A program made the position numbers and the translations under genes. Below the pieces are notes generated by a model. That model had not been told where the DNA came from. It made no database searches and saw only the letters and a program-made list of their open reading frames with translations. DNA of 64,000 nt, taken from positions 62,001-126,000 of the forward strand of contig NZ_ABCK01000012.1 in assembly GCF_000170755.1 (NCBI RefSeq), given 5' to 3'. Positions 22,586-47,589 of this stretch are shown here, piece by piece (the stretch's first letter is position 1; each line of letters starts with the position of its first letter). The stretch comes from Lentisphaera araneosa HTCC2155. Lineage in GTDB: Bacteria > Verrucomicrobiota > Lentisphaeria > Lentisphaerales > Lentisphaeraceae.

Positions 22586-22599
22586 TAACTGAAAGATCA

Positions 22600-23041
22600 T
22601 CGATTCAAATAATTATTTCAGTAAGTTGTAAGTGCAGTCTTTCTATGCCATGCCTTCGGCATTCAATTATATTATTATCCAATCATACCCAAGGCTGACG
22701 AGGCTGCGTAAAAAACACTTTTTCAGGTGCAGAGCACCGATAGACAGTAGCGTGTGGTGCAGCCACAGGTGCGGAGAAATCGTTCTTATCCGCCCGTATG
22801 GCAATACCTCGCGGATGTGAGTCCGGCATAGTGTGTCGGACCCAAGTTTGGGCCCTGGCTTAATTCCGCTCTCATTTCCATGCCCCTCACGGGGCAGGCT
22901 ACATTCTAGTGGACTCACAGGTGAGCCCTGACAATATAGATATTTCTTTATTTTTCACACAGCCTGGCACGAAAGTGCCAGGTATGCAGGTAAAGCAAAA
23001 ACCTGAGTTCCAAGAGGACAGCATATTGTTAAAAATCTTAG
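22600..23041. repeat. repeat R1, copy a (split)
   Basis: The left part (22600-22699) and right part (22957-23041) match repeat R1 at 42685 and 44115. The hallmarks are the ATGCC-TTC-GGCAT hairpin, then CAATTATATTATTATCC, and on the right the perfect hairpin CCTGGCAC-GAAA-GTGCCAGG followed by GAGTTCCAAGAGGACA. Between the two parts a different, GC-richer 257-bp segment (22700-22956) replaces the usual middle. At its right end the repeat runs directly into a sulfatase fragment. Confidence 0.7.
22700..22956. other. hairpin-dense GC-richer segment, possible structured RNA
   Basis: Inverted repeats follow one another closely: GGTGC-AGA-GCACC, GTCCG..CGGAC, CCCAA-G-TTTGGG, TGCCCC-TCAC-GGGGCA and GGACTCAC-AG-GTGAGCCC. 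No convincing coding frame is present on either strand. It is distinctly GC-richer than its surroundings and lies inside repeat R1. It could be a structured RNA, the end of a mobile element, or an inserted repeat. Confidence 0.4.
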
Positions 23042-23045
23042 AGGC

Positions 23046-23150
23046 TCAAGATAAACCTAAGGTTTTGCTTATAGCAGTGGATGACCTCAATGATTGGATA
23101 GGTGCATGGAGGTCATCCCGAGGCAAAAACACCAAATATAGATTTCCTAG
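23046..23150 (+). pseudogene. fragment of iduronate-sulfatase-like gene
   Basis: The translation DKPKVLLIAVDDLNDWIGA matches the 7737 sulfatase (DKPNVLIIAVDDLNDWIGV), then goes out of frame while the DNA still resembles it to about 23150 (the GGCAAAAACACCAAA stretch). It is joined directly to the R1 repeat at its left side, giving a chimeric open frame 22909-23208. It is one of three such fragments in the window and is non-functional. Confidence 0.75.
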
Positions 23151-23185
23151 AACATTACCGGGAAAATTATTTTTAAACGACATAA

Positions 23186-23200
23186 TTGCGCAGTTCGCAA
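23186..23200. repeat. palindromic mini-repeat, copy 2
   Basis: TTGCGCAGTTCGCAA. The following 50 bp are nearly identical to those after copy 1 (6185-6237), so the mini-repeat and promoter P4 travel together. Confidence 0.5.
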
Positions 23201-23245
23201 AACCGTGATTATAAATCCCCTTAAATGAATCTTTTTTCTTACTTT

Positions 23246-23274
23246 CTGTCATTTTATGAATTCTCACTACAACT
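23246..23274 (+). promoter_or_regulatory. putative shared promoter element P4
   Basis: CTGTCATTT, 14 nt, ACAACT (23269-23274), about 80 nt before the DUF1552 gene. The upstream 40 bp match P1 almost base for base. Confidence 0.52.
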
Positions 23275-24681: not shown

Positions 24682-27129
24682 ATGTACTTTAAGATTATTA
24701 GATCCAGTATCCTGATAGTTAGTCTTAGCTTGGGACACACTATTTTTGCCACCGACAAGACTGATTTCGACTCCTTTGTTACTCCTTTTCTGGAAAAATA
24801 CTGTATCGACTGCCATGACGACGTCGATCAAGAAGGAGGGGTGGCCCTTCATGACCTTAAAGCCGTCACTCCTGAGAATGCCGCATTATGGATGCGTACA
24901 TGGGAACAAGTTGCTTTAAAGCAGATGCCTCCTAAAAAAAGAAAGGCCAGTAAACAGCCTTCGCTGGAAGAGCGTTTCCAACTATCTAATTGGATCACGG
25001 GCGAAATGGAATTGGCGATGAAAGATCACGGCGGCTTCAGTGCCCACCAGAGTGCTGCCAAGGGTAATCACCTTGATCATGATTTGCTCTTTGGCAAACT
25101 CGAAGCCAAACCAGAGCCGGGTTCCTCTCCGGCTAGAATTTGGCGTTTGTCTCCACAGGAGCACATGAACCGCCTCAATGATTTAATTAATGCTATTCCC
25201 GAGTACGACCCCCAGTACCCGGGAAGGAGAAGTCATGGAGACCCCATTCCTCCTGACAAATACGGCGATGCTAAAGTTTATTACAGCTTAGACAGGATAG
25301 TGGGTCACATAGGTGGTTTCGTGGCTTATGAAACCGCGGTTAGATCATTTCCTTCTGTGATGACCTTAAAATCCGCTCATGGATTAAAGAATTATTCAAA
25401 TCAATACTCAGTGAATGGCTCTGAGGTGGCACAGATCTCGACTGTAGCAAAAGATATCATTCATTACATGGCCTTTGGGCCCGATGCTCTGCCACATCAA
25501 TACGTCGATTCGAAGAAAGAGGTAGCTAAAGAGCACCTCAATCCCGATTTTAGGGGCTTGCCAAAAAGTCTTTTTTACAAAAAGGAAATGACTCGGCCAT
25601 TAAGCCCTGTTTACAGCTTATTAAATAAAGATGATGAATGGAATGACGATAAACTAAGAGAGGCTATTTACTTTTTGTACCGTGCTCTTACTTTCAAGGA
25701 TCCCAAGGAGAGTGAATCAAATGAATACCTGGATATTCTCAAAAATACGATAGCGAGTCTTGGGAAAAAGGATGGCCTAATACTGGGGCTCACGCCAATA
25801 TTTTTAGATAGGGATGCTTTGTATAGAACTGAATTGGCTGATTACGGTACGCCGGATGAATATGGCCGGGTCATGTTGCAGGGTGAGGAATTATTACTGG
25901 CGATCAACGCAGCCTTGGCTTATGTTGAACCCGATGCCGGCCTAAGGGAAGCTTTGAAAGCCGGGAAACTCAAAACTGTGGACGATGTTCGCCGGGAAGT
26001 CAAACGTTTACTGGATGACGAGAGTTTTAGAAAACCAAAAATTACGCAATTTTTTAGAGAGTACTTTGATTACGACTATGCCATAAAAATTGACAAGGAT
26101 AAAAATGCTGTTAATAAAGCTGGTGGAACATTGGCCAAACGCAATTACCAATCATCAGTTATCGGGCAGGTGGTCGCTACAGACCGACTCATTCAACTTA
26201 TTGTAGAGGAAGATACCGAAGTCCTGAAAAATTTATTGACCACCAACAGAGTGATCCTCGATCCAGAGAAGGATTGGCGTCAATTTAGTGTTTTGGAAGT
26301 TGAAAAAGAAGAGCGGGAACAATTCAAATTAGAGCTGAAGAAGGCAAAAGAAGAGCGAGAAAAAGCTAAGAAAGTCCTTGTGGATCCAAAGACAGGAGCT
26401 GGTTTCTTCAGCCAAGGCCAGAAAAAACCCATAAGGATGGTCTTTCCTACACCTAAGGGCTTTCTAAATAGTTTGGAATTACCAGGTCGAAAGATTGAAA
26501 CAATCGTTTCGAATAAAAGAAATAATATACTCACAACTTTACCCAAAGAGCAGCGCATGGGAATTTTAACTCAACCCAGTTGGTTGATATCCCATTCGGA
26601 TGCTATGGATAATCATGCTATTCTACGAGGTTTATGGGTACGCCAGCGTTTGTTGGGAGGTGCTGTTCCAGAAGTGCCCATCACTGTCGACGCCCAGCTT
26701 CCCGATCGACCCGACCATACACTTCGTCAACGCATGCATGTAACTCGTGAAAAAGAATGTTGGACTTGTCATCAAAAGATGGACCCATTGGGGCTGCCTT
26801 TCGAAACTTTTAATCACATCGGGCGTTTTGTTGAATTTGATCACGGCAAAAAGGTCGATGCCACAGGAGAGATTATTTATAGTGGGGATCCTGAACTGGA
26901 TGGGCCGGTGGAAAATGCTTTTGAAATGATTGAAAGGCTGGCCAAGAGTGAACGAGTAGAACAGGTCTTTGTACGTTACGCCTTCCGCTTTTGGATGGGC
27001 CGCAATGAAACTTTGGCTGACGCACAAACTTTACAAGAAGCTCACCGAGCTTATCGCGAGAGTGGTGGCAGCATGAAAGCTCTGATCCTCTATCTATTAA
27101 GTTCAGATGCTTTTCTGTATCGCAAATAG
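24682..27129 (+). CDS. DUF1592/DUF1588-type cytochrome-like protein
   Basis: The open frame begins at 24631 inside the upstream gene. ATG 24682, with GAGAG before it and a clean signal peptide (MYFKIIRSSILIVSLSLG), is preferred, giving 815 residues. The N-terminal haem motif CIDCH lies about 40 residues in, with DVDQEGGVALHDLK after it. The C-terminal motif CWTCHQKMDPLGLPFETFNHIGR corresponds to DUF1588, followed by the DUF1585 part ending LILYLLSSDAFLYRK. A charged helical stretch (EEREQFKLELKKAKEEREKAKK) is an unusual insertion. It is probably periplasmic and haem-bearing, co-expressed with the DUF1552 gene. Function beyond haem binding is unknown. Confidence 0.87.
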   Translation: MYFKIIRSSILIVSLSLGHTIFATDKTDFDSFVTPFLEKYCIDCHDDVDQEGGVALHDLKAVTPENAALWMRTWEQVALKQMPPKKRKASKQPSLEERFQLSNWITGEMELAMKDHGGFSAHQSAAKGNHLDHDLLFGKLEAKPEPGSSPARIWRLSPQEHMNRLNDLINAIPEYDPQYPGRRSHGDPIPPDKYGDAKVYYSLDRIVGHIGGFVAYETAVRSFPSVMTLKSAHGLKNYSNQYSVNGSEVAQISTVAKDIIHYMAFGPDALPHQYVDSKKEVAKEHLNPDFRGLPKSLFYKKEMTRPLSPVYSLLNKDDEWNDDKLREAIYFLYRALTFKDPKESESNEYLDILKNTIASLGKKDGLILGLTPIFLDRDALYRTELADYGTPDEYGRVMLQGEELLLAINAALAYVEPDAGLREALKAGKLKTVDDVRREVKRLLDDESFRKPKITQFFREYFDYDYAIKIDKDKNAVNKAGGTLAKRNYQSSVIGQVVATDRLIQLIVEEDTEVLKNLLTTNRVILDPEKDWRQFSVLEVEKEEREQFKLELKKAKEEREKAKKVLVDPKTGAGFFSQGQKKPIRMVFPTPKGFLNSLELPGRKIETIVSNKRNNILTTLPKEQRMGILTQPSWLISHSDAMDNHAILRGLWVRQRLLGGAVPEVPITVDAQLPDRPDHTLRQRMHVTREKECWTCHQKMDPLGLPFETFNHIGRFVEFDHGKKVDATGEIIYSGDPELDGPVENAFEMIERLAKSERVEQVFVRYAFRFWMGRNETLADAQTLQEAHRAYRESGGSMKALILYLLSSDAFLYRK

Positions 27130-27464
27130 CAAAAGTGGACAGGGCAGTAGCGATTGATCATAGTGATTTAATCTGCACAGCTTGGACTTTTACTTCAATA
27201 GAGCATGTAGGGAAAGATGCTCCTTTTTACATACGGACTCAGAAAGCATAGTTTGGGCTATGCCCTTGGTAAAGAAATTGTATTGAAATGAGGAGAAATT
27301 GCGAAATTTTTTCAATTAAAAATCTTTCTTTGTCATTTTGAGAAAGTTTAGGACAATAATCTAGCAAGAATATCACAGTGTCTCACACTTCATCAAATTC
27401 TGACCAAGAATCATCAGTTTTTAAATTATAAATGAGCTCAATAGAGCCAAATGGAATAAAAAAA
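27130..27464 (+). other. gap with promoter-like element P5 and no gene seen
   Basis: No coding frame can be supported. It holds element P5 (27330-27358). Confidence 0.4.
27330..27358 (+). promoter_or_regulatory. putative shared promoter element P5
   Basis: TTGTCATTT, 14 nt, ACAATA (27353-27358). GGACAATA is identical to P2. It lies about 105 nt before the lipoprotein start at 27465. Confidence 0.58.
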
Positions 27465-27761
27465 ATGAAATATATTATCAGTCTACTATTACTTATCTTT
27501 GTCTCATGTACTTCCACAAATCATTCATGGGAAGAAAATGCGAAAGTTATAAAAGTAAAAGACGGGCTCATTAAATGTGATGGTGAAAGAAAAGGCCAAC
27601 TTTCAAGTGACGGCCAATGGTCAGGTGAAATAGAAGCTAAAAATGCTATTTTCGAAAGTGAGGATGGTCGTTCTATGCAATTTACGGGAGATGTTAAGAT
27701 AGCTGTTGATGAGAATGGTTTAGCTCAAATCACTGCGAAAAATTTGAAATTCTTAAAGTGA
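27465..27761 (+). CDS. small lipoprotein of unknown function
   Basis: 98 residues from ATG 27465; the longer frame from 27432 lacks a leader. The leader MKYIISLLLLIFVSC ends in a lipobox (FVSC, Cys15), so it is probably a lipoprotein. The rest is beta-rich, with EAKNAIFESEDGRSMQFTGDVKI resembling the repetitive strands of LptA/OstA-like or similar proteins, but the match is too weak to name. It is followed by a ~110-bp sequence that recurs after the next small gene. Confidence 0.6.
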   Translation: MKYIISLLLLIFVSCTSTNHSWEENAKVIKVKDGLIKCDGERKGQLSSDGQWSGEIEAKNAIFESEDGRSMQFTGDVKIAVDENGLAQITAKNLKFLK

Positions 27762-27762
27762 A

Positions 27763-27870
27763 ATGACCTTTAGTCACACATATGAATAAAGTTATAATTG
27801 CTTATCACTGCTTTTCTGGGGCTGTAAGTTTGAGGAACCTGTAAAAATAACGATTAATTAGAAATAAAGG
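27763..27870 (+). repeat. gene-trailing direct repeat, copy 1
   Basis: Begins ATGACCTTTAGTCAC at the stop of the lipoprotein gene and ends near TAACGATTAATTAG. The related copy (28117-28236) follows the next small gene in the same position. TGAC-CTTTA-GTCA forms a small stem. The two units, gene plus trailing repeat, are arranged in tandem like cassettes. Confidence 0.55.
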
Positions 27871-27877
27871 GAATTAT

Positions 27878-28120
27878 ATGGATCATATTTTTATATTTCT
27901 TTGTATTGCGTTCTCTCTATTGGGAGTTCGGCGCATGTATAAAAAGCATCAAATACAAAATGATCGCATTGAAGAGAAATTGGATATGATTTTACAATAC
28001 CATAATATCAAGTGGCATAGCGCAGAGGAAAAAAAGAACATCAAATCACTGGCGACTCAAGTTATGATAGATGGTGATGTTGAAGCTGCGAAAAAATTGG
28101 AGGTTTTTAAAACGCAATGA
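27878..28120 (+). CDS. small membrane-anchored protein
   Basis: 80 residues: one N-terminal transmembrane helix (about 2-19, IFIFLCIAFSLLGV), a basic stretch RRMYKKHQ and a charged helical tail (IEEKLDMIL..., then DGDVEAAKKLEVFK). The end loosely recalls the L7/L12 C-terminal-like fold of other small membrane proteins such as that at 47740, though the evidence is thin. Good GGGAATT context upstream. The stop overlaps the second trailing repeat. Function unknown. Confidence 0.6.
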   Translation: MDHIFIFLCIAFSLLGVRRMYKKHQIQNDRIEEKLDMILQYHNIKWHSAEEKKNIKSLATQVMIDGDVEAAKKLEVFKTQ

Positions 28121-28236
28121 CCTTTAGTCACGCATATGAGTAAAATCGTAATCACTTTATTAACTGTCTAGGCCTTTTGTTTCTGCGGGTATTTGTCCCA
28201 ATAAGCTGTAAAATAACGATTGATGAGAAAAAAAAG
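28117..28236 (+). repeat. gene-trailing direct repeat, copy 2
   Basis: ATGACCTTTAGTCACGCATATGA at the start and TAACGATTGATGAG near the end, diverged in the middle relative to copy 1. It starts within the stop codon of the 27878 gene. Confidence 0.55.
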
Positions 28237-28349
28237 TTGACTTAAATGATCAAGGGTTTATCAAAGGTTCAGGGGGATTTGAAACAGAATCGCGGAAGAT
28301 AAAAAACTTCAATAAGATACAGCTCGACTTAAGTGCATGACTGAGGATA

Positions 28350-28400
28350 TCTAAATGGTGAACTTGTCGGTGAAAAGGGAATGATTGAAAGGCTGGCCAA
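28350..28400. other. micro-mosaic of two gene fragments
   Basis: 28350-28386 is identical over 37 bp to 47085-47121, inside the 46138 sulfatase. 28380-28400 is identical over 21 bp to 26925-26945, inside the DUF1592 gene. The two overlap by 7 bp (AATGATT). The right end continues into repeat R1 copy b. Neither fragment is in a functional context. Confidence 0.7.
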
Positions 28401-28664
28401 CAGTGCTAGGTATGCAGGTAAAACAAAAAGTTTGAGTTCCAAGAGGACAACATATTGTTAAAAATAAACAATCAATGTTAACAACATGATAAGGATATTT
28501 TAATATCCGTCTTGCTGATAAAGCTTCTGATTCCACAAAGAGATAAAGATGCTTTAGAAAAAATATCGTTAAAAATCTTAGAGGCAGTCATAACTAAATC
28601 ATTGACGACAATTATGGATTAAGTTTTTAAAGTTCTAACTAAAGAAAATATTTAAAGGGAAAAA
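28400..28664 (+). repeat. repeat R1, copy b (right part)
   Basis: Nearly identical to 44299-44562. It contains GTGCTAGGTATGCAGG, the dyad GGATATT-TT-AATATCC and a run to the ATG of a small membrane-protein gene, which here is interrupted by the insertion sequence. The left, hairpin-rich part of R1 is missing and replaced by the micro-mosaic. Confidence 0.75.
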
Positions 28665-28692
28665 ATGGATATCTTAGCGATTCTTGTAATTA

Positions 28693-30576
28693 GTGCGTGA
28701 CCGAAAACCCAGTGTTTATGAGTTTGTTGATGATTTTAAGTTAATATAAAAATTCAAAATATGGTTATACGTGTCGTGCAGTCATAGTATTATCATTTTT
28801 TTAAGGCCTAGGCGTCAGAACAAAGGCTTTTTTTCTATTTATTCACTAAGTCAAGGCAGGAGAAAGTACGCCGTGAATGGCGTTTTTATTATTATGAAGA
28901 GCTTTAAGCGCTTTTTCTTTTTCTACGTAGGACTTTGATTTATCTGGCCATGATGATAGCACCAAGATGATGGATATTACTGGCACTTATCGCCATAGCG
29001 GCATAACGTTCGAAATTAGGAGTACCCTTATCAGGGCATCGGTCAAAACCATGACTTTCAAGAGCGTTAATAGCTGATTCAACTGCGGGGTGTTGTTTGC
29101 GAGCGACGACAAAGGCCTCCTTACTTTCACGCTCTTGAGCAGCTTTATTTCGGCGACCTTTTACAGGGAGGTGAGCTCTTACCTCTAATGCTTCAATGCG
29201 GGAGTGATTATTTTGACCATCCTTATCTACCTTTGAATAAAAACCCTTATCAAAACTCATCGATGTCAGCCCAGGGTACAGCTCCTTACTTTTACGAACC
29301 ATTTCAACCGCCACGTCTTTATCCTGCTCGCCCTTCATGATCCTATGGTCGAGAATAAAGCCAAACTGATCTTCAACTACACATACCTTCACGCCAAGTT
29401 CCTGACGAATCCCAGCTTTTCCTTTGCATATCCATTCTGTGTGAGGTTCAAAAATCGAATACACCTTTTCATCGGGTGAAATAGTCTCTCCATTAAGAAC
29501 TCTACGACTTATTTGCTTAATGAATAAGTCCGTGTAATCCATGTTTAACTGAAGCTTGGGACACTCTTCATCTAAAGAATTCTGGAGAGTTCTTGCTTTG
29601 AGTAAATGAGCTCGAGCCACACTAAGGTAATCCTTAATTATCTCCTCTATTTCTAAGCGACGTTTTTCCTTTCGCTCTTCTTTCTTCGAGTTAGAGTGAC
29701 GCATCTTGCTCAGTTTATTATAAAGGCTATGGAATTTCTTTTGCTGGCTTTTTACTTCACGCCAGCCAGTGATTTTCAAAGATGAAGCCAATTTGCCTCC
29801 GATGCTCAATACTTTGCGTACAGAATCTTTTAATAGATTCAAATCAGTGGGGAAATGAACATTCGTTTCAAAAACAAAAGAATCGCAACGACTATGTAAT
29901 TCTCGTTCTTCTGGGAAAAGTAATTCATGGCTGAAAGCAACTACGAGTTTACTAATTTTATTGGCAATTTCTTTTGTAAAAAGGCTAACGTTATCGTGTA
30001 TTGTTTGGCGTCCTGTAACTATGTCGACATCACAAAAAAGATCAACTCCACAGATCTCCCGAATTTTGTGATGATAATCATAGCAACTTTTGAGCTTGTC
30101 ATAATCCCAATTACAGCTCAAACGCAAAGTGCCTAAAACAAAAATAACCCAGAGATCCATTCCTTTACGTCCATCATTCCAGGATGTTCCTTTAGGAACT
30201 AATTCAGACAAAACATCTTGGATTTCTTTGAGTAAAACTTTGTTTCGATAAATTTCTTGTAAACCACGAAGAGTTTTGGTTATTTCATCACGGCAGTATG
30301 TGTCGAGTCTCACTTGTTCAATTGGCGTGACTCCGAGAAGTGGGTTTTCTCCTAATTCTGCTTGTGTACTTGTAAAATTACGCATGCTATATGACACCTT
30401 GGATTCTTTTATTTTATCTGTATCCTATTGGATAAATAGTAGTTTATGATGAAGTACTATACATTTAAACAAAAGTTTTATAGGGTACTTTAATACTGTT
30501 TTCTAGAAAAACTCACAACTTATTTTCCTTATAAATTATTATACTTAAAAGACTTAGGTTCATTTCGGTCAGGCAC
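28693..30576 (-). mobile_element. insertion sequence, 1884 bp, with 14-bp terminal inverted repeats
   Basis: The boundaries come from comparison with the uninterrupted copy at 44563. The left end is GTGCGTGACCGAAA and the right end, read inward, GTGCCTGACCGAAA (13 of 14 identical). Target-site duplication TAATTA flanks it at 28687-28692 and 30577-30582. The single transposase gene is on the minus strand. Hairpins followed by T-runs lie between the transposase stop and the left end (for example GAGC-TTTAA-GCGC then TTTTTC). The element is complete and probably recent. Confidence 0.93.
28940..30397 (-). CDS. transposase (DDE type, ISNCY/IS5-like, unassigned)
   Basis: 485 residues, the only gene in the insertion sequence. 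SRCDSFVFETNVHFPTDLNLL, with a conserved Asp and His-x-Pro-Thr-Asp, matches the first catalytic block of IS5/IS1182/ISNCY-type transposases. Later blocks are DEKVYSIFEPHTEWICKGKAG and SFDKGFYSKVDKDG; the last resembles the DxGY/F block. The family assignment is uncertain; a 6-bp target duplication and GTGC termini argue against several common groups. The length is full and no frameshift is seen, so it is likely active or recently active. Confidence 0.87.
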   Translation of the reverse strand: MSYSMRNFTSTQAELGENPLLGVTPIEQVRLDTYCRDEITKTLRGLQEIYRNKVLLKEIQDVLSELVPKGTSWNDGRKGMDLWVIFVLGTLRLSCNWDYDKLKSCYDYHHKIREICGVDLFCDVDIVTGRQTIHDNVSLFTKEIANKISKLVVAFSHELLFPEERELHSRCDSFVFETNVHFPTDLNLLKDSVRKVLSIGGKLASSLKITGWREVKSQQKKFHSLYNKLSKMRHSNSKKEERKEKRRLEIEEIIKDYLSVARAHLLKARTLQNSLDEECPKLQLNMDYTDLFIKQISRRVLNGETISPDEKVYSIFEPHTEWICKGKAGIRQELGVKVCVVEDQFGFILDHRIMKGEQDKDVAVEMVRKSKELYPGLTSMSFDKGFYSKVDKDGQNNHSRIEALEVRAHLPVKGRRNKAAQERESKEAFVVARKQHPAVESAINALESHGFDRCPDKGTPNFERYAAMAISASNIHHLGAIIMAR

Positions 30577-30844
30577 TAATTATATTATTAGGCACTTCAG
30601 GTTTTTTATTTAAACGAAGAGTTATTATTAATGGTACAGAAGTTATCATTAAAAATAATCCTTTTGGAATTGAGACAATCCTAATAGATGGAACTGAAGA
30701 AGTCTCAAAATTTTCAGTAACAGGTGGAGTATACAATTTTACTATAGGTGAGTCTAAAGTAGAAGTTGATTATTTCTACCGCTTAGGAGGCCTAGCTATT
30801 GGGGTCACTATACGAAAAGATGGCGAAGTTTATTACTCAGACAA

Positions 30845-30908
30845 GTAGAACCATTAGATGCACCTGTTACTCGAGTACCTCGAGTACAGGTGATCTAGGA
30901 CGTTAGGT
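30845..30908 (+). repeat. attC-like hairpin, copy of 44853-44916
   Basis: Identical to the site after the intact small gene: stem with two bulged bases (G, T), loop TAC, right end GTTAGGT. It directly follows the interrupted gene. Confidence 0.5.
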
Positions 30909-30940
30909 CACACTAATTATAAATAAAAAAGAGAACGATT

Positions 30941-31441
30941 ATGAAAGCAAAATTATTAATAGGTTTAACGACCTTATCAATTGTGACAGGATGTACATCA
31001 TCTTTAGAAAAGAGAATGTCTAAACTTGAACAAGCTACTATAAAAGAGCATGATGACCCAAAAATAGAAAAATTATTATCTCAATTAACTGCAGCTTCTT
31101 ATTACTCTAGTTATAAACCCACTAAAAACGATATTTTAATAGCCTTAGCTTATTAAAAGAAAAAAGTTCAGTCCCACAAATTATTGCTTTAGCAAAGTAT
31201 CCGATAATCGACACTTTAGATCCCAGCATATAAGTTTAGGTGGATCAGATGACGCTCTATTGATTATTTAAAACATTCAATGAAAAACGATTCATATATA
31301 CATGCTAGACGTAGTGCTGCTTATGCATTAGAGCAGATTACAGGTGAAAAATATTTAACAGAGGAAAATGGCTTTGAAGACGAATCGACAATATTAAAAA
31401 AGTATCTAGAAATGAGAAAAAAAGATCAATCGGAAAAATAA
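30941..31441 (+). pseudogene. HEAT-like lipoprotein gene with nine one-base deletions
   Basis: A copy of the intact gene 44949-45458. The first 70 residues are intact (MKAKLLIGLTTLSIVTGC lipobox), then a missing G at about 31147 shifts the frame to a stop at 31156. Eight more single-base losses follow within about 100 bp, all from homopolymer runs of two or more, and their sum (nine) restores the frame afterwards. Elsewhere the copies differ by only a few substitutions. This could be a local low-quality sequence or a pseudogene. Confidence 0.85.
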
Positions 31442-31455
31442 TAATACCGCAAAAC

Positions 31456-31531
31456 ATCTAACAAAAAGATCAACCTAATGTGAGACTTCCGCTGCGCTCC
31501 AGCACCATATAGCTTATCTAAGACGTTATGA
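31456..31531 (+). repeat. attC-like site, copy of 45473-45548
   Basis: R''-like ATCTAAC at 31456-31462 and R'-like GTTATGA at 31525-31531, with an imperfect stem between them. It follows the degraded HEAT gene, as in the intact copy. Confidence 0.5.
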
Positions 31532-31689
31532 GCTAAAAAAAGTAAATTTATAAAGATGATTCCAAACGATTTGGGAGCTTCAAAACAAGGGAGTCTTTCA
31601 TAAATTTGGAGTGTGAAATATAGAGTTAGTCAGTTGGGATTTTTCAGAAACCAAACCTAATATAAAACTTGAAGGTCTATGAAGAAAAC

Positions 31690-31918
31690 TAAATTTTCCT
31701 CATAGCAGTTGATGACCTCAATGATTGGATAGGAGTCCTTGGTGGTTACCCCCATGAAAAAACACCAAACATTGATCGTCTAGCAAACCGGGGAATGCTT
31801 TTTACAAATGCGCATTGTCAGTCACCTGTTTGTGGCCCTTCAAGAGAGAGCATGATGTCATCTCTGGACCCAAGTAAAACAGGTATTTATTTTTTAGGCC
31901 CGGGTTTGAAAGATTCGC
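31690..31918 (+). pseudogene. iduronate-sulfatase-like gene fragment
   Basis: DNA matches the N-terminal third of the 7737 sulfatase, including DDLNDWIG and the catalytic region CGPSRESMMSSL, but has no start or leader. The same fragment is at 45708. Here it ends at about 31918 where it fuses in frame to a DUF1592 fragment. Confidence 0.85.
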
Positions 31919-32079
31919 CTAGTTTCCTATATCTCGATGAACCCAATGATAAGCAAGGGCCACGCCAACTCACAGATCGCGAATTAGCCATACGCTTAGC
32001 TTATTTCTTGTGGAGTGCGCCACCAGATCAGAGGCTCTTAGAATTAGCTCAATCTAAACAACTGATGAGTTTTGTTTAA
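31919..32079 (+). pseudogene. DUF1592 gene fragment fused to the sulfatase fragment
   Basis: Continuing the frame of the sulfatase remnant, the product reads SFLYLDEPNDK..., then [20 protein letters not shown], which is the central DUF1592 signature (compare FIYLNEP and [20 protein letters not shown] at 272-2917). The DNA differs from the copies in this window, so the source is probably another paralogue. The frame ends after about 53 residues. The composite ORF 31795-32079 is not expected to be functional. Confidence 0.8.
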
Positions 32080-32136
32080 GTATAATAGAGCAGTAAATTA
32101 AGAAACCGTATTACGGAAAAATAGAGGCCTTCCCTG

Positions 32137-32964
32137 ATGAAACATAAGAATATAGAACCCTTTTTTGTGAGACGCTTATACCGGCAAGAGTCTACGGGAG
32201 AGAATTCCCTGCCGAAACTTCGTTGCGGAATTCGCATTAGAGAAATAGGTCAGGAAGTAGCTGAAACAAGTGAATATATTATCATGTACATGATCGATGG
32301 TTCCGGTGTCTACCAGACTTCTTGCGGGCAAGAGATCCCTTTTGAATCAGGAGATATTGTTCAGCGTTTTCCAACTCAAAGACATAAAATCAGCTGGAAG
32401 GAGCAAGGGCGTATGGCGGTCATGGTCGTCCCTCATCAGCTCTTTGATTTGCTTAAAACCTTGAGTCAAAGCACTGTTCTAAGTGATCCTGTTTTAAAAA
32501 ATTACGGGGATGGCGAGCGCTTTATTGCGACTTGTCTAAAAATCAAAAAAATGATGATGGAATATTCCGATGACGAACTTTTGGAGATTTCCAATGAGAT
32601 GCAAGCCTTTATTAGTCGAATCATTATGAATGCTGAACAAAGTGATCCATTGATCAGTAAAGTTGATGCCTACCTTGATGAATGTCACACAGGAAAAATA
32701 AAGCTGGAGGATTTAGCTAATCATTGTGCTATGAGTGTGTCTAGTTTTCGTTTTAAATTCACTGAAATCACCCGCACTTCTCCCGGGCGCTATATAATAT
32801 ATAAACGTCTTGAACGAGCGCGTGAATTACTGTTGAATTCAAAGCTGTCTGTATTAGAAATTTCTACTGAATTATCTTATCCTGACGTTTCGGATTTTTG
32901 CCGACAATTCAAAAAGTTTATAGGGGTTACGCCTCTTCAATATCGAGCTTTTCCTGACTGTTAA
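32137..32964 (+). CDS. AraC family transcriptional regulator
   Basis: 275 residues. The N-terminal part (about 35-100) looks like a cupin-type ligand-binding domain (YIIMYMIDGSGVYQTSCGQEIPFESGDIVQRFPTQRHKI is the typical jelly-roll course). The C-terminal part (about 170-272) is the double helix-turn-helix domain: KIKLEDLANHCAMSVSSFRFKFTEITRTSPGRYI, then LSVLEISTELSYPDVSDFCRQFKKFIGVTPLQYR. AraC regulators with this layout commonly activate sugar or glycan utilisation genes. It precedes the sulfatase block 33270-42684 by 305 bp and is the likely local regulator. The ligand is not deducible. Confidence 0.92.
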   Translation: MKHKNIEPFFVRRLYRQESTGENSLPKLRCGIRIREIGQEVAETSEYIIMYMIDGSGVYQTSCGQEIPFESGDIVQRFPTQRHKISWKEQGRMAVMVVPHQLFDLLKTLSQSTVLSDPVLKNYGDGERFIATCLKIKKMMMEYSDDELLEISNEMQAFISRIIMNAEQSDPLISKVDAYLDECHTGKIKLEDLANHCAMSVSSFRFKFTEITRTSPGRYIIYKRLERARELLLNSKLSVLEISTELSYPDVSDFCRQFKKFIGVTPLQYRAFPDC

Positions 32965-33269
32965 TCAATTTAATACGGGGTTTAGTCCGGAGTTGGAGAA
33001 GAAAAACCGGTCGTCGAAGACGGCTAATTGCGGCCTCCGCAAAATCCTGTAAAAAATGAAAATCGTACCTGTTCACTGTCATATATAATAAACTCAAGAC
33101 AATTCTAGTTAAATAAATATTGTAATAGCGAAGATCTTACAGGCCGGGTTGGCAAGGGGAATTACTAACACATAAGAGAAATGTGTCATTCCCTGCTAAA
33201 TTCAGTTTACAGCAGATCTTTAGCTTACTTACAGGTCAATGAATAATACACTTTAATAAGGTTGAATAA
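32965..33269 (+). other. gap with hairpins and mini-repeat before the sulfatase block
   Basis: It contains CCGGTCGTC-GAA-GACGGC, a strong stem at about 33008-33024, then the palindromic mini-repeat (33027-33045). A weak P-like element GTCATTC (33185-33191) lies with a T/A-rich hexamer 14 nt later, about 80 nt before ATG 33270. No coding frame is seen. Confidence 0.4.
33027..33045. repeat. palindromic mini-repeat, copy 3
   Basis: ATTGCGGCCTCCGCAAAAT, dyad TTGCGG-CC-TCCGCAA, between the AraC gene and the sulfatase block. Confidence 0.5.
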
Positions 33270-34724
33270 ATGAATAAATTATTATCACTTCTGATTCTCA
33301 GCTGTCTTGCTGTCCAGGCTGCCGACAAGCCGAACATTGTCCTCATTATGGTGGATGATCTTGGGGGCAGAGATTTGGCTGTGTACGGAAATAAATTTAA
33401 TGAAAGCCCTAATATAGACAAGTTAGCCACTCAGGGAATGGTCTTTGATCAAGCTTATGCGGCACCGGTTTGTTCTGCTACCCGTGCGAGTATTCAGTCG
33501 GGACAAACGCCGGCACGAGTGGGGATTTTTGATTTTATTCCCGGTCATTGGCGTCCTTATGAAAAAGTCACTGTGCCCCACCACAAAATACAGCATTTAC
33601 CTGAAAATATTTTTACTCTTGGCGATGCCATGAAATCGGCGGGTTATAAAACCGGCTATTTTGGTAAATGGCACCTCAATGATAGGACTGCAAAGGGCAA
33701 AGAAGCACGTCATACACCGGATGAACGTGGCTATGATAAGTCTTACATGTATAACGGAGGGGGATTTTATCGTCCTGTTTTTCAACCGGCTTATAAGCTC
33801 GATAAACCCAAACGTTTAAGTCAGGTACTCACTGATATGGGTGTTGATTTTATTAAAGAAAATAAAGATCAGCCCTTTTTCCTATTTGTCTCACACTATG
33901 ATGTGCACGTGCAATTAGATGCAGATAAAGATCTTATCGACAAGTATTTGAATAAAAAAAGAGATCCCAATTACCCCGGCAATGCCGTTTATGCTGCAAT
34001 GATTGAGCACACCGACGATAGCGTAGGGCAGTTAATGAAGGCAATTGATGATCAAGGTTTAGCAGATAATACTCTATTTATTTTTTACTCCGATAATGGC
34101 GGCGTTGATAACCGCTATGACGATATTCCTTTGTTAGGTGGACGCAGTGTCAATGTCTATCCAGAGGGGCACCCATTGAGATATGTGGCGACTTCTAATG
34201 CACCGCTTAGATCAGGGAAAGGCACTGTGTACGAAGGCGGCATACGCGTGCCGCTCATCGTGAGGTGGCCTGGGAAAGTCAGTCCGGGAACTCGTTCTGA
34301 AGCCGTTTTTAGCAGTTCCGACTTTTATCCAAGCTTTTTAGAGGTCACCAAAACACAGGCGCCCAAAAACCAGGTGCTCGACGGCGTCTCTATGGTGCCG
34401 GCACTGACGAAAAATAGTTTCGATCCGGAGCGAGAGGTCTTCACTCACTACCCCGTTTATCACCATGATGAGCCCATGTCGGCATTGAGAAAAGGTGACT
34501 GGAAAATCATTGAGAATTTAGTGAGTAAAGAGTTTTACCTCTACAACATAAAATACGATGTCAATGAAATGGTGGACCACAAAGTCAGCTTGCCGGCTAA
34601 ATTTGCTGAAATGAAAGCGGCTTTAGTGAAATGGCAAAAAGAGACAAAGGCGCAAATGCCTGTTCCCAATCCAAAATTTGATCCCTCTAAACGTTATCAA
34701 TGGGGGAAAAATCCCTATAAATAA
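33270..34724 (+). CDS. secreted sulfatase (S1 family), CSATR active site
   Basis: 484 residues. Signal peptide 1-18 (LSCLAVQAADK), metal-binding Asp29-Asp30 (VDDLGGRDLAVYG), formylglycine motif CSATR with Cys68 (Ala instead of the usual Pro, which the C-x-P/A-x-R rule allows). Later GKWHLNDR, FYSDNGGVDN and YEGGIRVPL. The second half has VSHYDVHVQLDAD, a metal- or substrate-binding course seen in many marine sulfatases. It is the first gene behind the AraC regulator. The next sulfatase follows after 194 bp, with a GC-rich hairpin (GCGGC-GA-GCCGC) between them. Confidence 0.9.
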   Translation: MNKLLSLLILSCLAVQAADKPNIVLIMVDDLGGRDLAVYGNKFNESPNIDKLATQGMVFDQAYAAPVCSATRASIQSGQTPARVGIFDFIPGHWRPYEKVTVPHHKIQHLPENIFTLGDAMKSAGYKTGYFGKWHLNDRTAKGKEARHTPDERGYDKSYMYNGGGFYRPVFQPAYKLDKPKRLSQVLTDMGVDFIKENKDQPFFLFVSHYDVHVQLDADKDLIDKYLNKKRDPNYPGNAVYAAMIEHTDDSVGQLMKAIDDQGLADNTLFIFYSDNGGVDNRYDDIPLLGGRSVNVYPEGHPLRYVATSNAPLRSGKGTVYEGGIRVPLIVRWPGKVSPGTRSEAVFSSSDFYPSFLEVTKTQAPKNQVLDGVSMVPALTKNSFDPEREVFTHYPVYHHDEPMSALRKGDWKIIENLVSKEFYLYNIKYDVNEMVDHKVSLPAKFAEMKAALVKWQKETKAQMPVPNPKFDPSKRYQWGKNPYK

Positions 34725-34918
34725 TGAGTGTAATGCGGACTCTTCAATGAGGCGTCAATATTCAACTACTCTTAGCGGCGAGCCGCCGGTGCTCCCAGGG
34801 TGTAAATGATTTGCTTCGTTCAAGGACATTGATTCATTTTAGAAATATTAGCCAAGGCTCTTCTTACACACTTTTCTTCTGTTAACTTTCACAACTTCAA
34901 TTAAATAAAAGGTTTATT

Positions 34919-36685: not shown

Positions 36686-36710
36686 AGGCTTGAAATAAGG
36701 GTGAATACCA

Positions 36711-39709: not shown

Positions 39710-39769
39710 AATGACTGTCGACTAAGGGCAACATATAGACAAATGAATTATTTTAACTAGGTACACCAC

Positions 39770-41200: not shown

Positions 41201-41301
41201 TTAAAGTGTTGTAAAATCATAAAAAAAAGGCTCGAGGAACGCAGCATGACTGACGTCAAAATGAGTTTTAAAAAGAAAAAATTTAAATAAGGGAATAAAT
41301 A

Positions 41302-42684: not shown

Positions 42685-43122
42685 AAGGCGATCGACTCAA
42701 ATGATTATTTCAGTAAGTTGAAAGTGTAGGCTTTCTATGCCATGCCTTCGGCATTCAATTATATTATTATCCAATCATAGCCAAGGCTGACGCCATTGGG
42801 CTGAAATATGCCATGCCTTCGGCATTCAATTAGAGTCCCAAAGGGACGATATAGTACAGCCTGGCACGAAAGTGCTAGGTACGTAGATAAAACAAAAACC
42901 TGAGTTCCAAGAGGACAACATATTGTTAAAAATAAACAATCAATGTTAACAACATGATAAGGATATTTTAATATCCGTCTTGCTGATAAAGCTTCTGATT
43001 CCACAAAGAGATAATGATGACTTCCAAAAAAATATCGTTAAAAAGCTTAGAGGTAGTCATAACTAAATCATTGAGGACAATTATGGATGAAGTTTTTAAA
43101 GTTCATCCTGAAGTGCAAGCTA
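42685..43122 (+). repeat. repeat R1, copy c (complete)
   Basis: The most complete copy together with copy d. It has ATGCC-TTC-GGCAT twice, GTCCC-AAA-GGGAC, the GGCAC-GAAA-GTGC stem (here with one mismatch further out), the dyad GGATATT-TT-AATATCC and the CAATCAATGTTAACAACATG stretch. It runs from the 3' end of a sulfatase to about 60 bp before a small lipoprotein gene. Its near end contains a short piece like the sulfatase segment TTCATCCTGAAGTGC. Reverse-strand open frames inside it are probably spurious. Confidence 0.75.
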
Positions 43123-43185
43123 AGAATTTGGCTTTAAAAATAATCTTAATATTTCAGTGTAAAAAAATAAAAAGGAAAAAAAACT

Positions 43186-43743: not shown

Positions 43744-43758
43744 ATACCGATACAAGAG

Positions 43759-43838
43759 GTCGAACTGTTACCATTAGTTAATGGAAAATGTGATCCATTT
43801 TCCATCACAACAGTTACAGCTCACTCCTAGAGTTATGT
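43759..43838 (+). repeat. attC-like hairpin after the 43186 gene
   Basis: GTCGAAC at 43759-43765 and GTTATGT at 43832-43838 bracket a stem: AACTGTT pairs with AACAGTT, and inside it ATGGAAAATG pairs with CATTTTCCAT. The right box resembles the attC R' consensus GTTRRRY. It is less convincing than the site at 45473. Confidence 0.4.
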
Positions 43839-43966
43839 CCAAATGAAAACTGCGAAGCTGTACTTTCATCCTTACCTTGGAAAATCATCATAGAGCCCAA
43901 ATTATATAGGTTCATCGACTTCTTTATTCCAGTATTAGCGGCTACCCGCAGGTATATCGTTGCTTA

Positions 43967-44114: not shown

Positions 44115-44562
44115 AAGGCGATCGACTCAAATGATTATTTCAGTAAGTTGAAAGTGCAGTCTTTCTATGCCATGCCTTCGGCATTCAATTATATTATTAT
44201 CCAATCATACCCAAGGCTGACGCCATTGGTCTGAAATATGCCATGCCTTCGGCATTTAATCAGAGTCCCAAAGGGACGGTATAGTACAGCCTGGCACGAC
44301 AGTGCTAGGTATGCAGGTAAAACAAAAGTTTGAGTTCCAAGAGGACAACATATTGTTAAAAATAAACAATCAATGTTAACAACATGATAAGGATATTTTA
44401 ATATCCGTCTTGCTGATAAAGCTTCTGATTCCACAAAAAGATAAAGATGCTTTAGAAAAAATATCGTTAAAAAGCTTAGAGGCAGTCATAACTAAATCAT
44501 TGACGACAATTATGGATTAAGTTTTTAAAGTTCTAACTAAAGAAAATATTTAAAGGGAAAAA
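44115..44562 (+). repeat. repeat R1, copy d
   Basis: Similar to copy c and, from 44299, almost identical to copy b at 28400. It connects the sulfatase remnant to the small membrane-protein gene at 44563. Confidence 0.75.
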
Positions 44563-44856
44563 ATGGATATCTTAGCGATTCTTGTAATTATATTATTAGG
44601 CACTTCAGGTTTTTTATTTAAACGAAGAGTTATTATTAATGGTACAGAAGTTATCATTAAAAATAATCCTTTTGGAATTGAGACAATCCTAATAGATGGA
44701 ACTGAAGAAGTCTCAAAATTTTCAGTAACAGGTGGAGTATACAATTTTACTATAGGTGAGTCTAAAGTAGAAGTTGATTATTTCTACCGCTTAGGAGGCC
44801 TAGCTATTGGGGTCACTATACGAAAAGATGGCGAAGTTTATTACTCAGACAAGTAG
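44563..44856 (+). CDS. small membrane-anchored protein
   Basis: 97 residues. One N-terminal transmembrane helix (about 3-17, ILAILVIILLGTSGFLF) is followed by a beta-rich domain of about 75 residues. AAAGGG stands 6 nt before the ATG. Codon use is AT-rich. An identical gene at 28665 is interrupted by the insertion sequence. The attC-like hairpin overlaps the stop codon. No family is recognised. Confidence 0.7.
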   Translation: MDILAILVIILLGTSGFLFKRRVIINGTEVIIKNNPFGIETILIDGTEEVSKFSVTGGVYNFTIGESKVEVDYFYRLGGLAIGVTIRKDGEVYYSDK

Positions 44857-44916
44857 AACCATTAGATGCACCTGTTACTCGAGTACCTCGAGTACAGGTG
44901 ATCTAGGACGTTAGGT
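44853..44916 (+). repeat. attC-like hairpin 1
   Basis: TAGAT-CACCTGT-ACTCGAG pairs with CTCGAGT-ACAGGTG-ATCTA around loop TAC, with two bulged bases (G44868, T44876) on the left arm. The right end is GACGTTAGGT, matching the attC R' consensus GTTRRRY. The left box GTAGAAC only partly fits RYYYAAC. Bulged bases and a spacer (CAT/GGAC) between inner stem and outer boxes are features of integron attC folds. Confidence 0.5.
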
Positions 44917-44948
44917 CACACTAATTATAAATAAAAAAGAGAACGATT

Positions 44949-45458
44949 ATGAAAGCAAAATTATTAATAGGTTTAACGACCTTATCAATTGTGACAGGAT
45001 GTACATCATCTTTAGAAAAGAGAATATCTAAACTTGAACAAGCTACTATAAAAGAGCATGATGACCCAAAAATAGAAAAATTATTATCTCAATTAACTGC
45101 AGCTTCTTATTACTCTAGTTATAAACCCACTAAAAACGATATTTTAACAGCCTTAGGCTTATTAAAAGAAAAAAGTTCAGTCCCACAAATTATTGCTTTA
45201 GCAAAAGTATCCGATAATCGACACTTTAGATCCCAAGCATATAAAGTTTTAGGGTGGATTCAGGATGAACGCTCTATTGATTATTTAAAACATTCAATGA
45301 AAAACGATTCATATATACATGCTAGACGTAGTGCTGCTTATGCATTAGAGCAGATTACAGGTGAAAAATATTTAACAGAGGAAAATGGCTTTGAAGACGA
45401 ATCGACAATATTAAAAAAGTATCTAGAAATGAGAAAAAAAGATCAATCGGAAAAATAA
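44949..45458 (+). CDS. HEAT-repeat-like lipoprotein
   Basis: 169 residues with lipobox leader (LTTLSIVTGC, Cys18). The body is helical, with HEAT-like repeats: VPQIIALAKVSDNRHFRSQAYKVLGWI, then RSIDYLKHSMKNDSYIHARRSAAYALEQITG. The scaffold probably mediates protein contacts at the membrane. The ribosome site is GAGAACG. It is AT-rich. A degraded copy lies at 30941. It is flanked by the attC-like sites 44853 and 45473, in the geometry of an integron cassette. Confidence 0.75.
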   Translation: MKAKLLIGLTTLSIVTGCTSSLEKRISKLEQATIKEHDDPKIEKLLSQLTAASYYSSYKPTKNDILTALGLLKEKSSVPQIIALAKVSDNRHFRSQAYKVLGWIQDERSIDYLKHSMKNDSYIHARRSAAYALEQITGEKYLTEENGFEDESTILKKYLEMRKKDQSEK

Positions 45459-45472
45459 TAATACCGCAAAAC

Positions 45473-45548
45473 ATCTAACAAAAAGATCAACCTAATGTGG
45501 GACTTCCGCTGCGATCCAGCACCATATAGCTTATCTAAGACGTTATGA
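45473..45548 (+). repeat. attC-like site 2
   Basis: R''-like ATCTAAC (fits RYYYAAC) at 45473-45479 and R'-like GTTATGA at 45542-45548 (the same GTTATG as in Vibrio VCR ends). Between them is an imperfect stem: AGAT.AA.CTA pairs with TAG.TT.ATCT, then ATGTG with CACCAT, then GGA with TCC. It follows the stop of the HEAT lipoprotein gene by 14 bp. Of the three candidates this resembles attC most. Confidence 0.55.
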
Positions 45549-45707
45549 GCTAAAAAAAGTAAATTTATAAAGATGATTCCAAACGATTTGGGAGCTTCAA
45601 AACAAGGGAGTCTTTCATAAATTTGGAGTGTGAAATATAGAGTTAGTCAGTTGGGATTTTTCAGAAACCAAACCTAATATAAAACTTGAAGGTCTATGAA
45701 GAAAACT

Positions 45708-46008
45708 AAATTTTCCTCATAGCAGTTGATGACCTCAATGATTGGATAGGAGTCCTTGGTGGTTACCCCCATGAAAAAACACCAAACATTGATCGTCTAG
45801 CAAACCGGGGAATGCTTTTTACAAATGCTCATTGTCAGTCACCTGTTTGTGGCCCTTCAAGAGAGAGCATGATGTCATCTCTGGACCCAAGTAACACAGG
45901 TATTTATTTTTTAGGCCCGGGTTTGAAAGAATCGCCAAGGACGAAAAATCATCTAGTCATGCCCAGTCGCTTTGAAGACGAAGGCTATCAGCTAAGTACT
46001 GCAGGTAA
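45708..46008 (+). pseudogene. iduronate-sulfatase-like gene fragment
   Basis: Same left boundary as the copy at 31690 but extends further, through CGPSRESMMSSL and the segment ending YQLSTAGKL, before breaking at about 46008, where the mini-repeat begins. It has no leader or start and is non-functional. The parent type is the 7737 sulfatase. Confidence 0.85.
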
Positions 46009-46013
46009 GCTAT

Positions 46014-46137: not shown

Positions 46138-47589
46138 ATGAAACGTTTCATACTATTGGGTATTGTAGCCCTAGGCCTTTTACCATTAACAAGTTTCGCC
46201 TCGCAGAAAGGCGTAAATCCACCAAATATTATTGTTATTGTAACTGACGACCACGGTTATGCCGACTTCGGTGCCTATGAAGGTTCCTCTCCGGACTTAA
46301 AGACCCCCCATTTAGATGCTCTTGCTAAAAATGGTGCCGTCGTCACAAATGGCTACTCGACTGCACCACAGTGTACGCCTTCACGAGCTGCTATAAGTAC
46401 CTCCAGGTATCAAACTCGATTTGCTTTGGATGATAATGATTTAGCGCCTATGGATATCAATGAAACGACCATTGCAGAAAAGTTAAAAGATGCCGGCTAT
46501 ACAACGGGTTTTGTAGGAAAATGGCATTTAAACCCAAATAGACTCAGTACGCTTTGGATGAAAGATCATTATTCCGAGGGACTGAAACAAAAAAAGGTGC
46601 GTATCCCCGAAAATATAAGTCGTCCGTACTTCCCTATGAGCCGTGGTTATAGTGATTACTATGATGGTGCACTGTCCACTTATTTAAGAAATTATGACTT
46701 GCAGGGCAAGGCCATAAAACATCAACGCGAAGTGGATAAAAAAACTTTTCGCGTCGATAAGCAAACTGATGCAGCCTTAGCTTTCCTAGATAAAAATCAT
46801 AACAAGCCCTTTTTTCTGCACCTCAATTACTACGCACCTCACGTACCCATGGAAGTCGTTAAAAAGCATTTTGATCGTTTCCCCGGTGAAATGACGGAAC
46901 GTCGCCGTTGGGGCTTAGCCTCTTTAGCGGCCATTGACGATGGCATTGGCGCTGTCATGGAATCTTTGAGAAAATATAAAATCGAAGAGAATACGATTGT
47001 TTTTTACTTTGCCGACAATGGCGCACCACTGAAAATCAAAAAGGAAGATCTGCCCTTTAATGCTGCAGGGGGCTGGTCCGGTTCTCTAAATGGTGAACTT
47101 GTCGGTGAAAAGGGAATGATTTCAGAAGGGGGCGTGCGTGTGCCATACCTCGTGTATTGGAAGGGCAAAATTCCTGCACAAGTTTACCACAAACCGGTGA
47201 GTACCATGGATGCAGGTGCTACCGCTTTAGCACTTGCCGGCGTAACAGTTAAAAAAGGCGAGCTCGATGGTGTGGATCTCATGCCGTATTTATCGAAGAA
47301 GAATAAGTCAAATCCCCATGAATACCTCTATTGGAGATTTTGGGGGCAGTCAGCCATTCGTTCAGAGAAGTGGAAGTTTTTTGAGTTGGAAAATGGCGTG
47401 CAGATGCTTTTTGATATGACTGATCCCCTGCCGGAAAGAATAAACCTGATCAAAAGCCACCCCGAATTAGCAGCAAATTTACAAAAGAAATTAGCCACTT
47501 GGAGGAACCAGCAGAAGCGCCCGGGTTTTATTCATAAGTTTCATCGGGAAGCTAAAGCCTTTGATCATTATTTTAATTTCAAAAAATAA
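46138..47589 (+). CDS. secreted sulfatase (S1 family)
   Basis: 483 residues. Leader 1-21 (LLPLTSFASQK), metal-binding Asp37-Asp38 (TDDHGYADFGAYEG), formylglycine site CTPSR with Cys79, then GKWHLNPN, YYAPHVPME and FADNGAPLKI. The C-terminal GGVRVPYLVYWKG and DGVDLMPYL resemble the 21008 enzyme. It stands alone behind P6. A 37-bp piece of this gene (47085-47121) is found in the micro-mosaic at 28350. Confidence 0.9.
   Translation: MKRFILLGIVALGLLPLTSFASQKGVNPPNIIVIVTDDHGYADFGAYEGSSPDLKTPHLDALAKNGAVVTNGYSTAPQCTPSRAAISTSRYQTRFALDDNDLAPMDINETTIAEKLKDAGYTTGFVGKWHLNPNRLSTLWMKDHYSEGLKQKKVRIPENISRPYFPMSRGYSDYYDGALSTYLRNYDLQGKAIKHQREVDKKTFRVDKQTDAALAFLDKNHNKPFFLHLNYYAPHVPMEVVKKHFDRFPGEMTERRRWGLASLAAIDDGIGAVMESLRKYKIEENTIVFYFADNGAPLKIKKEDLPFNAAGGWSGSLNGELVGEKGMISEGGVRVPYLVYWKGKIPAQVYHKPVSTMDAGATALALAGVTVKKGELDGVDLMPYLSKKNKSNPHEYLYWRFWGQSAIRSEKWKFFELENGVQMLFDMTDPLPERINLIKSHPELAANLQKKLATWRNQQKRPGFIHKFHREAKAFDHYFNFKK

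What the first reader, a model, noticed from the sequence alone, without database searches (positions are those of the whole stretch)
28350..28664. Three-part mosaic joined at microhomology
37 bp from the 46138 sulfatase, 21 bp from the 24682 DUF1592 gene and repeat R1 are joined end to end. The first join shares AATGATT. Exact identity of such short pieces to genes 1.4 and 19 kb away points to template switching or microhomology-mediated repair rather than ordinary recombination.
Basis: seen in the sequence. Interest (0 to 1): 0.6.

Follow-up and report, generated by a model that had tools for sequence, protein, structure and literature searches.

The report
Patchwork scar from template-switching DNA repair
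Between two genes of a marine bacterium sits a scar in which tiny exact copies of two nearby genes and a larger copied block are stitched together, most likely left when a broken replication fork jumped between templates; the process is of a known kind, though the example is a striking one.

Summary
28350-28386 is an exact 37-bp copy of the 46138 sulfatase gene, 28380-28400 an exact 21-bp copy of the PSD/DUF1592 gene; they share AATGATT. "R1" is the front of a ~1.63-kb copy of 44299-45936, ending at 31919 and later split by a 1,884-bp IS with a 6-bp target duplication. The left flank is a truncated DUF2807 gene, intact in a same-genus genome; the right flank is an older PSD-gene fragment. Donors remain in place; all pieces keep one orientation. 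No element holding the join was found in 97 relatives. Best reading: one replicative repair event with serial template switches (MMBIR/FoSTeS-like). Only one join has significant strict microhomology (7 bp, P 0.00065); two others have 1 and 2 strict bases inside near-matches. The main rival, a 20.2-kb tandem amplification eroded by deletions, explains order and orientation but needs two deletion ends within 37 and 21 bp of the join. Nine crowded homopolymer deletions at 31147-31251 look like a poor read, so long-read confirmation is needed. Known kind of process; modest interest.

The parts
28229..28336 (+). left flank: truncated remnant of a DUF2807 (GIN-domain) gene; similarity stops at 28336
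   Evidence: 73% to an intact 259-aa gene in same-genus genome G001; that gene is PF10988, E 2.2e-32
28337..28349 (.). 13 bp of unassigned sequence at the first join
   Evidence: no exact match of 13 bp or more in the contig; a 16-mer across it is found elsewhere once with 1 mismatch, compatible with chance
28350..28386 (+). piece 1: exact copy of 47085-47121, inside sulfatase gene 46138-47589
   Evidence: Pfam Sulfatase E 7.7e-52
28380..28400 (+). piece 2: exact copy of 26925-26945, near the 3' end of PSD gene 24682-27129; shares AATGATT with piece 1
   Evidence: Pfam PSCyt1/DUF1592/DUF1588/DUF1585
   Evidence: hairpin
28693..30576 (-). insertion sequence, inserted later into the copy; target duplication TAATTA at 28687-28692 and 30577-30582; ends GTGC[G/C]TGACCGAAA
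   Evidence: 12 further places in the genome match its 28687-28900 end; only a sub-threshold Pfam hit to DDE_Tnp_1_2, E 0.048
30577..31919 (+). piece 3, second part: copy of 44585-45936 (HEAT-repeat ORF and the 5' part of a decayed sulfatase gene)
31918..32068 (+). right flank: 151-bp fragment of another PSD gene; relatives at C12:180262-180419 and in G001
   Evidence: 140 of 152 identical to each relative
26925..26945 (+). source of piece 2 (still in place)
44299..45936 (+). source of piece 3 (still in place; keeps its own flanks on both sides)
47085..47121 (+). source of piece 1 (still in place)

Best explanation
The stretch 28350-31919 is the product of one replication-based repair event with serial template switching (MMBIR/FoSTeS-like). 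A broken or stalled end in the degenerating DUF2807 gene annealed to the sulfatase gene 18.7 kb away and copied about 37 nt; it let go at AATGATT and re-annealed at the same 7 bases in the PSD gene, copied about 14 more nt, then re-primed in the loop of a hairpin at 44299 and copied about 1.63 kb, and finally rejoined at a fragment of another PSD gene at 31918. Result: an ectopic duplication with two short templated inserts at its left edge; the donors were unchanged. An IS later jumped into the copy. Shown: the pieces, their sources, strand, order, the IS target duplication, and which copy is derived. Inferred: that the four joins belong to one event, that synthesis (not cut-and-paste) made them, and the direction in which synthesis ran.
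For: Exact pieces with donors still in place. The 28.4-kb copy is the derived one: the 44.3-kb copy continues on both sides into sequence shared with other copies (left with 42553-43104, right with the 7737 sulfatase) while the 28.4-kb copy stops. AATGATT overlap: 7 bp or more at random joins of this contig has P 0.00065 in simulation. Join 3 starts at 44299, inside the 4-nt loop of a hairpin with an 8-9-bp stem (z -2.08, 9 of 200 shuffles fold as well); PSD and R1 sequences also resemble each other there (A.AG.CTGGC...A.AGTG, read by eye). Right join: 2 strict bases inside a 7-of-9 near-match (read). Substitutions between the two copies are 9 in about 1.63 kb, so zero changes in pieces 1 and 2 fits the same age. 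Ku was not found in the genome (0 matches), so Ku-dependent end joining is disfavoured. Such events are described for E. [quoted passage not shown] Pol I-mediated template switching is proposed in PMC5542668 (passages read).
Against: Only one join has significant strict microhomology; 1 bp (P 0.44) and 2 bp (P 0.17) are chance level. The first join cannot be judged, since the 13 bp before it are unassigned. All pieces have one orientation, which switching does not require. The flanking PSD fragment is older (92% to its relatives), so it was a landing site rather than a copied piece. Deletions between short direct repeats seem also to happen at this locus (the 22959 copy apparently lost 111 bp between GTTAAAAA repeats). 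A single event is assumed, not shown.
Confidence: 0.6

Rival explanations
1. Tandem amplification, then deletions. The AATGATT join is the junction of a 20.2-kb tandem duplication (47121 joined to 26925). After amplification to three copies, three deletions (28336 to 47085, 26945 to 44299, 45936 to 31918) removed nearly everything, leaving the scar.
For: Jumps alternate forward and backward along one strand, as deletions and a tandem junction would. One orientation throughout is expected. A short-repeat deletion is seen nearby at 22959.
Against: Two independent deletion ends must fall within 37 and 21 bp of the duplication join, about 2.4e-6 if ends are uniform. No other near-identical remnant of the 20.2-kb unit exists in the window. 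Needs four or more events instead of one.
Confidence: 0.2
2. Short single-stranded DNA patches. Fragments of the cell's own DNA annealed at microhomologies in the lagging strand and were ligated in (short-patch double illegitimate recombination, recalled from work in Acinetobacter baylyi).
For: Piece lengths of 37 and 21 bp, intragenomic sources and a 7-bp microhomology fit the recalled description.
Against: Two patches side by side plus a 1.63-kb block are more than one patch event is recalled to give. Competence of this organism was not examined. The key paper was not held and a phrase search found nothing.
Confidence: 0.1
3. Sequencing or assembly artefact in a repeat-rich draft genome of 81 contigs.
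For: Nine 1-base deletions, all in homopolymer runs, crowd into 31147-31251 with spacing that shrinks and then stops, as at the end of a poor read; chance of such crowding about 3e-9 by formula, 0 of 200,000 simulated. Two repeats (IS, duplication) lie beside the join.
Against: The poor patch lies 2.7 kb from the joins. Joins 1 to 3 lie within about 65 bp, which one read spans. A chimeric clone joins two fragments, not four, and an assembler does not join on 7 bp or 1 bp. The IS has a clean target duplication.
Confidence: 0.07
4. Reverse-transcriptase capture: sense fragments of transcripts were copied and joined by a group II intron or other RT.
For: The genome holds 26 RVT_1 matches, most of them near-identical 454-455-aa copies by score and length; gene pieces are in sense orientation.
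Against: Piece 3 spans intergenic DNA, an ORF and part of a decayed gene; no RT match lies within the window. Two sense pieces are expected by chance one time in four.
Confidence: 0.03

Closest known systems
Microhomology-mediated break-induced replication / fork stalling and template switching (MMBIR/FoSTeS)
   Same: Copied pieces from several places, short templated inserts, mixed duplication and deletion, a 7-bp microhomology at one join
   Different: Described for human CNV and induced E. coli amplification; here a fixed scar in a marine bacterium, with only one clearly microhomologous join and all pieces in one orientation
Short-junction tandem duplication remodelled by deletion (recalled from Salmonella and E. 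coli work)
   Same: 7-bp join of 47121 to 26925 has the layout of a tandem duplication junction
   Different: No tandem copy remains; remnants are 37 and 21 bp
Short-patch double illegitimate recombination (recalled)
   Same: Very short intragenomic patches at microhomology
   Different: Here chained to each other and to a 1.63-kb duplication

Membership tests
MMBIR/FoSTeS-type rearrangement | Join points at microhomology (2-15 bp in the E. coli Lac system) | tested here: inconclusive
   7 bp at one join (P 0.00065); 1 and 2 strict bp at two others, inside near-matches; first join cannot be scored
MMBIR/FoSTeS-type rearrangement | Complex product: several templates chained, duplication with deletion | tested here: met
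   three templated pieces plus loss of the 3' part of the DUF2807 gene
MMBIR/FoSTeS-type rearrangement | Templates copied, donors kept | tested here: met
   all three donors in place
MMBIR/FoSTeS-type rearrangement | One RecA-independent event | not testable with these tools
   needs genetics or a strain series
Ku/LigD non-homologous end joining | Ku present | tested here: not met
   0 Ku matches in the 96.7%-complete genome; the control rang in B. subtilis
Tandem duplication remodelled by deletions | Residual second copy of the unit | tested here: not met
   no other recent duplicate inside 26925-47121 besides the three pieces
Short-patch illegitimate recombination | Single short patch replacing local sequence, in a competent or ssDNA-exposed cell | not tested
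   definition recalled; paper not held
Mobile element carrying all three pieces | The pieces occur joined elsewhere | tested here: not met
   join pattern in 1 of 98 genomes, the own one only, with up to 3 mismatches; 0 exact matches in genome contigs and viral contigs, which may leave out the own genome

The most novel reading that the evidence does not exclude
A fossil of bacterial chromoanasynthesis in which the copied block was made by error-prone break-repair synthesis: the nine crowded 1-base deletions in homopolymer runs at 31147-31251 would then be real and mark a low-fidelity polymerase, not a bad read.
Probability: 0.04. Interest if true: 0.65.

Novelty: new member of a known kind. 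Interest (0 to 1): 0.33.

Why it matters
Chained short templated inserts are well known from human and yeast rearrangements; I recall few natural bacterial cases. If confirmed, this scar shows that the same repair route shapes gene-family clusters (151 sulfatase matches in this genome) in free-living bacteria, and it gives a concrete signature, isolated gene snippets at the edge of a fresh duplication, to search for in complete genomes.

Tried and rejected
Chance match: rejected. R1 as a self-standing mobile repeat: rejected, since it is the front of a longer copy and of an older family of remnants. A two-piece join without the PSD piece (R1 starting at 28390): rejected, since it needs about four changes in about 10 bp where the rest of the copy has 9 substitutions in 1.63 kb. 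IS-mediated joining: rejected, since the IS sits inside the copy with a clean target duplication. Ancestral element with all pieces: none found.

Wider survey of 837 kb (all of C12 and C2, 200 kb of C1, 40 kb of C13, 20 kb each of C33 and C22; 14% of the genome): 7 isolated exact gene-to-intergenic matches of 20 bp or more, two of them the mosaic pieces. Of the 2 that are 25 bp or longer, the other is a 58-bp palindrome-ended repeat shared by C13 and C33. Against my reading: that repeat has a second, 20-bp T-rich match to C13 only 11 bp away on C33, so the mosaic is not the only place where two such matches lie side by side; I take the C33 case for an integron-like cassette array, by eye. Open reading frames stood in for gene calls, so the gene or intergenic class is approximate. 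Isolation filters (flank identity below 50%, no neighbouring match near the same diagonal, low complexity dropped) removed most of the 1,543 raw matches. Pieces whose source lies in the unsampled 86% would be missed.

Papers: no held paper has both 'templated insertions' and 'bacterial chromosome'; the phrase search for short-patch double illegitimate recombination gave none. PMC5312590 was opened for a citation of that process and its passages gave none. These are narrow searches of an open-licence library and do not show absence from print.

Full report
WHERE IT LIES. The window is G000:C12:62001-126000 of a 6,023,180-base genome in 81 contigs. From size and sulfatase richness I take it to be Lentisphaera araneosa (recalled; no call names it). 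The genome has 151 sulfatase matches listed in one search. The locus is a cluster of sulfatase and PSD/DUF1592 genes with many decayed duplicates.

THE OBSERVATION. 28350-28386 equals 47085-47121 exactly (37 bp, sulfatase gene 46138-47589). 28380-28400 equals 26925-26945 exactly (21 bp, PSD gene 24682-27129). They overlap in AATGATT. From 28400 the sequence follows 44299. In the sulfatase the protein reads GEKGMI-SEGGVRV, in the PSD protein FEMIERLAKSERV, in the mosaic frame GEKGMIERLANSAR: each parent is left cleanly. The 14 bases of piece 2 past the overlap occur nowhere else in the genome. Random sequences of like composition had no repeat above 19 bp in a contig of this length (3 runs).

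R1 IS THE EDGE OF A LONGER COPY. 28400-28692 matches 44299-44590 and 30577-31919 matches 44585-45936. Between them lies an IS of 1,884 bp with target duplication TAATTA; its end is found at 12 further places. The two copies differ by 9 substitutions, one 1-base indel in a run of A at 28425, and nine 1-base deletions in the left copy, all in runs of 2-4 equal bases between 31147 and 31251. Of five substitutions that a third copy can polarise, three lie on the left copy and two on the right, so the left copy is not generally error-rich. The nine deletions come closer together toward 31251 and then stop, which looks like the end of a poor read. Five conserved blocks compared with G001 show no such crowd of 1-base gaps; two of the five hold gaps of mixed sizes, mostly at gene ends or between genes.

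WHICH COPY IS NEW. The 44.3-kb copy continues to the left into sequence shared with 42553-43104 and with G001, and to the right into sequence shared with the 7737 sulfatase, whereas the 28.4-kb copy breaks off at both ends. So the 28.4-kb copy was inserted. Its left neighbour, 28229-28336, is 73% identical to an intact 259-aa DUF2807 gene of G001 and stops there. Its right neighbour is a 151-bp fragment of a PSD gene, 140 of 152 identical both to C12:180262-180419 and to G001, hence older than the insertion.

THE JOINS. Join 1 (28336-28350): 13 unassigned bases; cannot be scored. Join 2: 7 bp. Join 3 (28400): 1 strict base; it lies in the loop of the hairpin CCTGGCAC-GACA-GTGCTAGG of the source, and the two parents look alike around it (by eye). 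Join 4 (31918-31919): 2 strict bases, 7 of 9 over a near-match. Random joins in this contig give 7 or more bases with P 0.00065, 2 or more with 0.165, 1 or more with 0.44. So microhomology is established for one join and only suggested for two.

MECHANISM. Serial template switching explains the very short exact inserts, the retained donors and the mixture of gain and loss in one step. Amplification with later deletions explains the same order and the single orientation, but must leave 37 bp on one side and 21 bp on the other of the tandem join, about 2.4e-6 under uniform ends, and has left no other trace in the window. That the locus does undergo short-repeat deletion is suggested by the 22959 copy of R1, where 111 bp between two GTTAAAAA repeats are missing. 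Ku was not found. I give switching 0.6 and amplification with deletion 0.2.

NO ANCESTRAL ELEMENT. The pieces are not found joined elsewhere in the own genome or in 97 relatives at up to 3 mismatches, nor exactly in the genome or viral collections (these may leave out the window's own genome).

HOW UNUSUAL WITHIN THE GENOME. In contig C12, 52 isolated exact matches of 18 bp or more were found; 43 are intergenic to intergenic, 6 gene to gene, 3 gene to intergenic, and the two longest of these 3 are the mosaic pieces. In 837 kb (14% of the genome) 7 gene-to-intergenic matches of 20 bp or more were found. One other neighbouring pair exists, a 58-bp repeat and a 20-bp T-rich match on C33, both to C13; these look to me like integron cassette repeats, not gene snippets, but I did not test that.

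LITERATURE. Passages read in PMC2621351: Lac amplification junctions in E. coli with 2-15 bp microhomology, about 25% complex amplicons, template switching proposed. Passages read in PMC5542668: Pol I proposed to switch templates. Passages read in PMC3411829: in Salmonella the cut-offs deduced from verified spontaneous rearrangements were 8-12 bp of microhomology, and a 7-bp duplication candidate was not verified, which counsels caution with a single 7-bp join.

VERDICT. Real, correctly seen, under-described; most likely a template-switching scar; known kind. Interest 0.33.

Noticed in passing
31147-31251: Nine 1-base deletions relative to the duplicate at 45156-45268, all in homopolymer runs, spacing shrinking toward 31251; probably a poor read end. 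The HEAT-repeat ORF is open in the other copy at 44949-45458.
   Followed up: partly
30845-30916 and 44853-44924: A repeat of about 60 bp, many copies on contigs such as C33, C25, C47, C13, C59; several of these contigs carry integron integrase matches (6 over the TIGR02249 cut-off in the genome). It may be an integron attC-like site; not tested.
   Followed up: partly
22589-23266: An older mosaic: remnants of the R1 region, an apparent internal deletion between GTTAAAAA repeats, the 5' end of a sulfatase and a 93-bp block shared with 6157-6249.
   Followed up: partly
whole window against G001:C1:2128809-2181801: A same-genus genome holds the blocks 1-2937, 27320-28336, 33330-38472, 41270-43850 and 56807-64000 in another order but the same orientation.
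   Followed up: no
28693-30576: Multi-copy IS with 6-bp target duplication; its 485-aa ORF has only a sub-threshold transposase hit in Pfam.
   Followed up: partly
G000 genome, e.g. C12:30049-30681 (outside the window): 26 RVT_1 reverse transcriptase matches, most of them with nearly the same score and a 454-455-aa open frame, so probably a mobile family.
   Followed up: no
contig C12, e.g. window 22644-22669, 42736-42761, 42807-42832: Many short, often palindromic intergenic repeats shared in mosaic fashion: 43 isolated intergenic pairs of 18 bp or more in C12 against 1 in 200 kb of C1.
   Followed up: no
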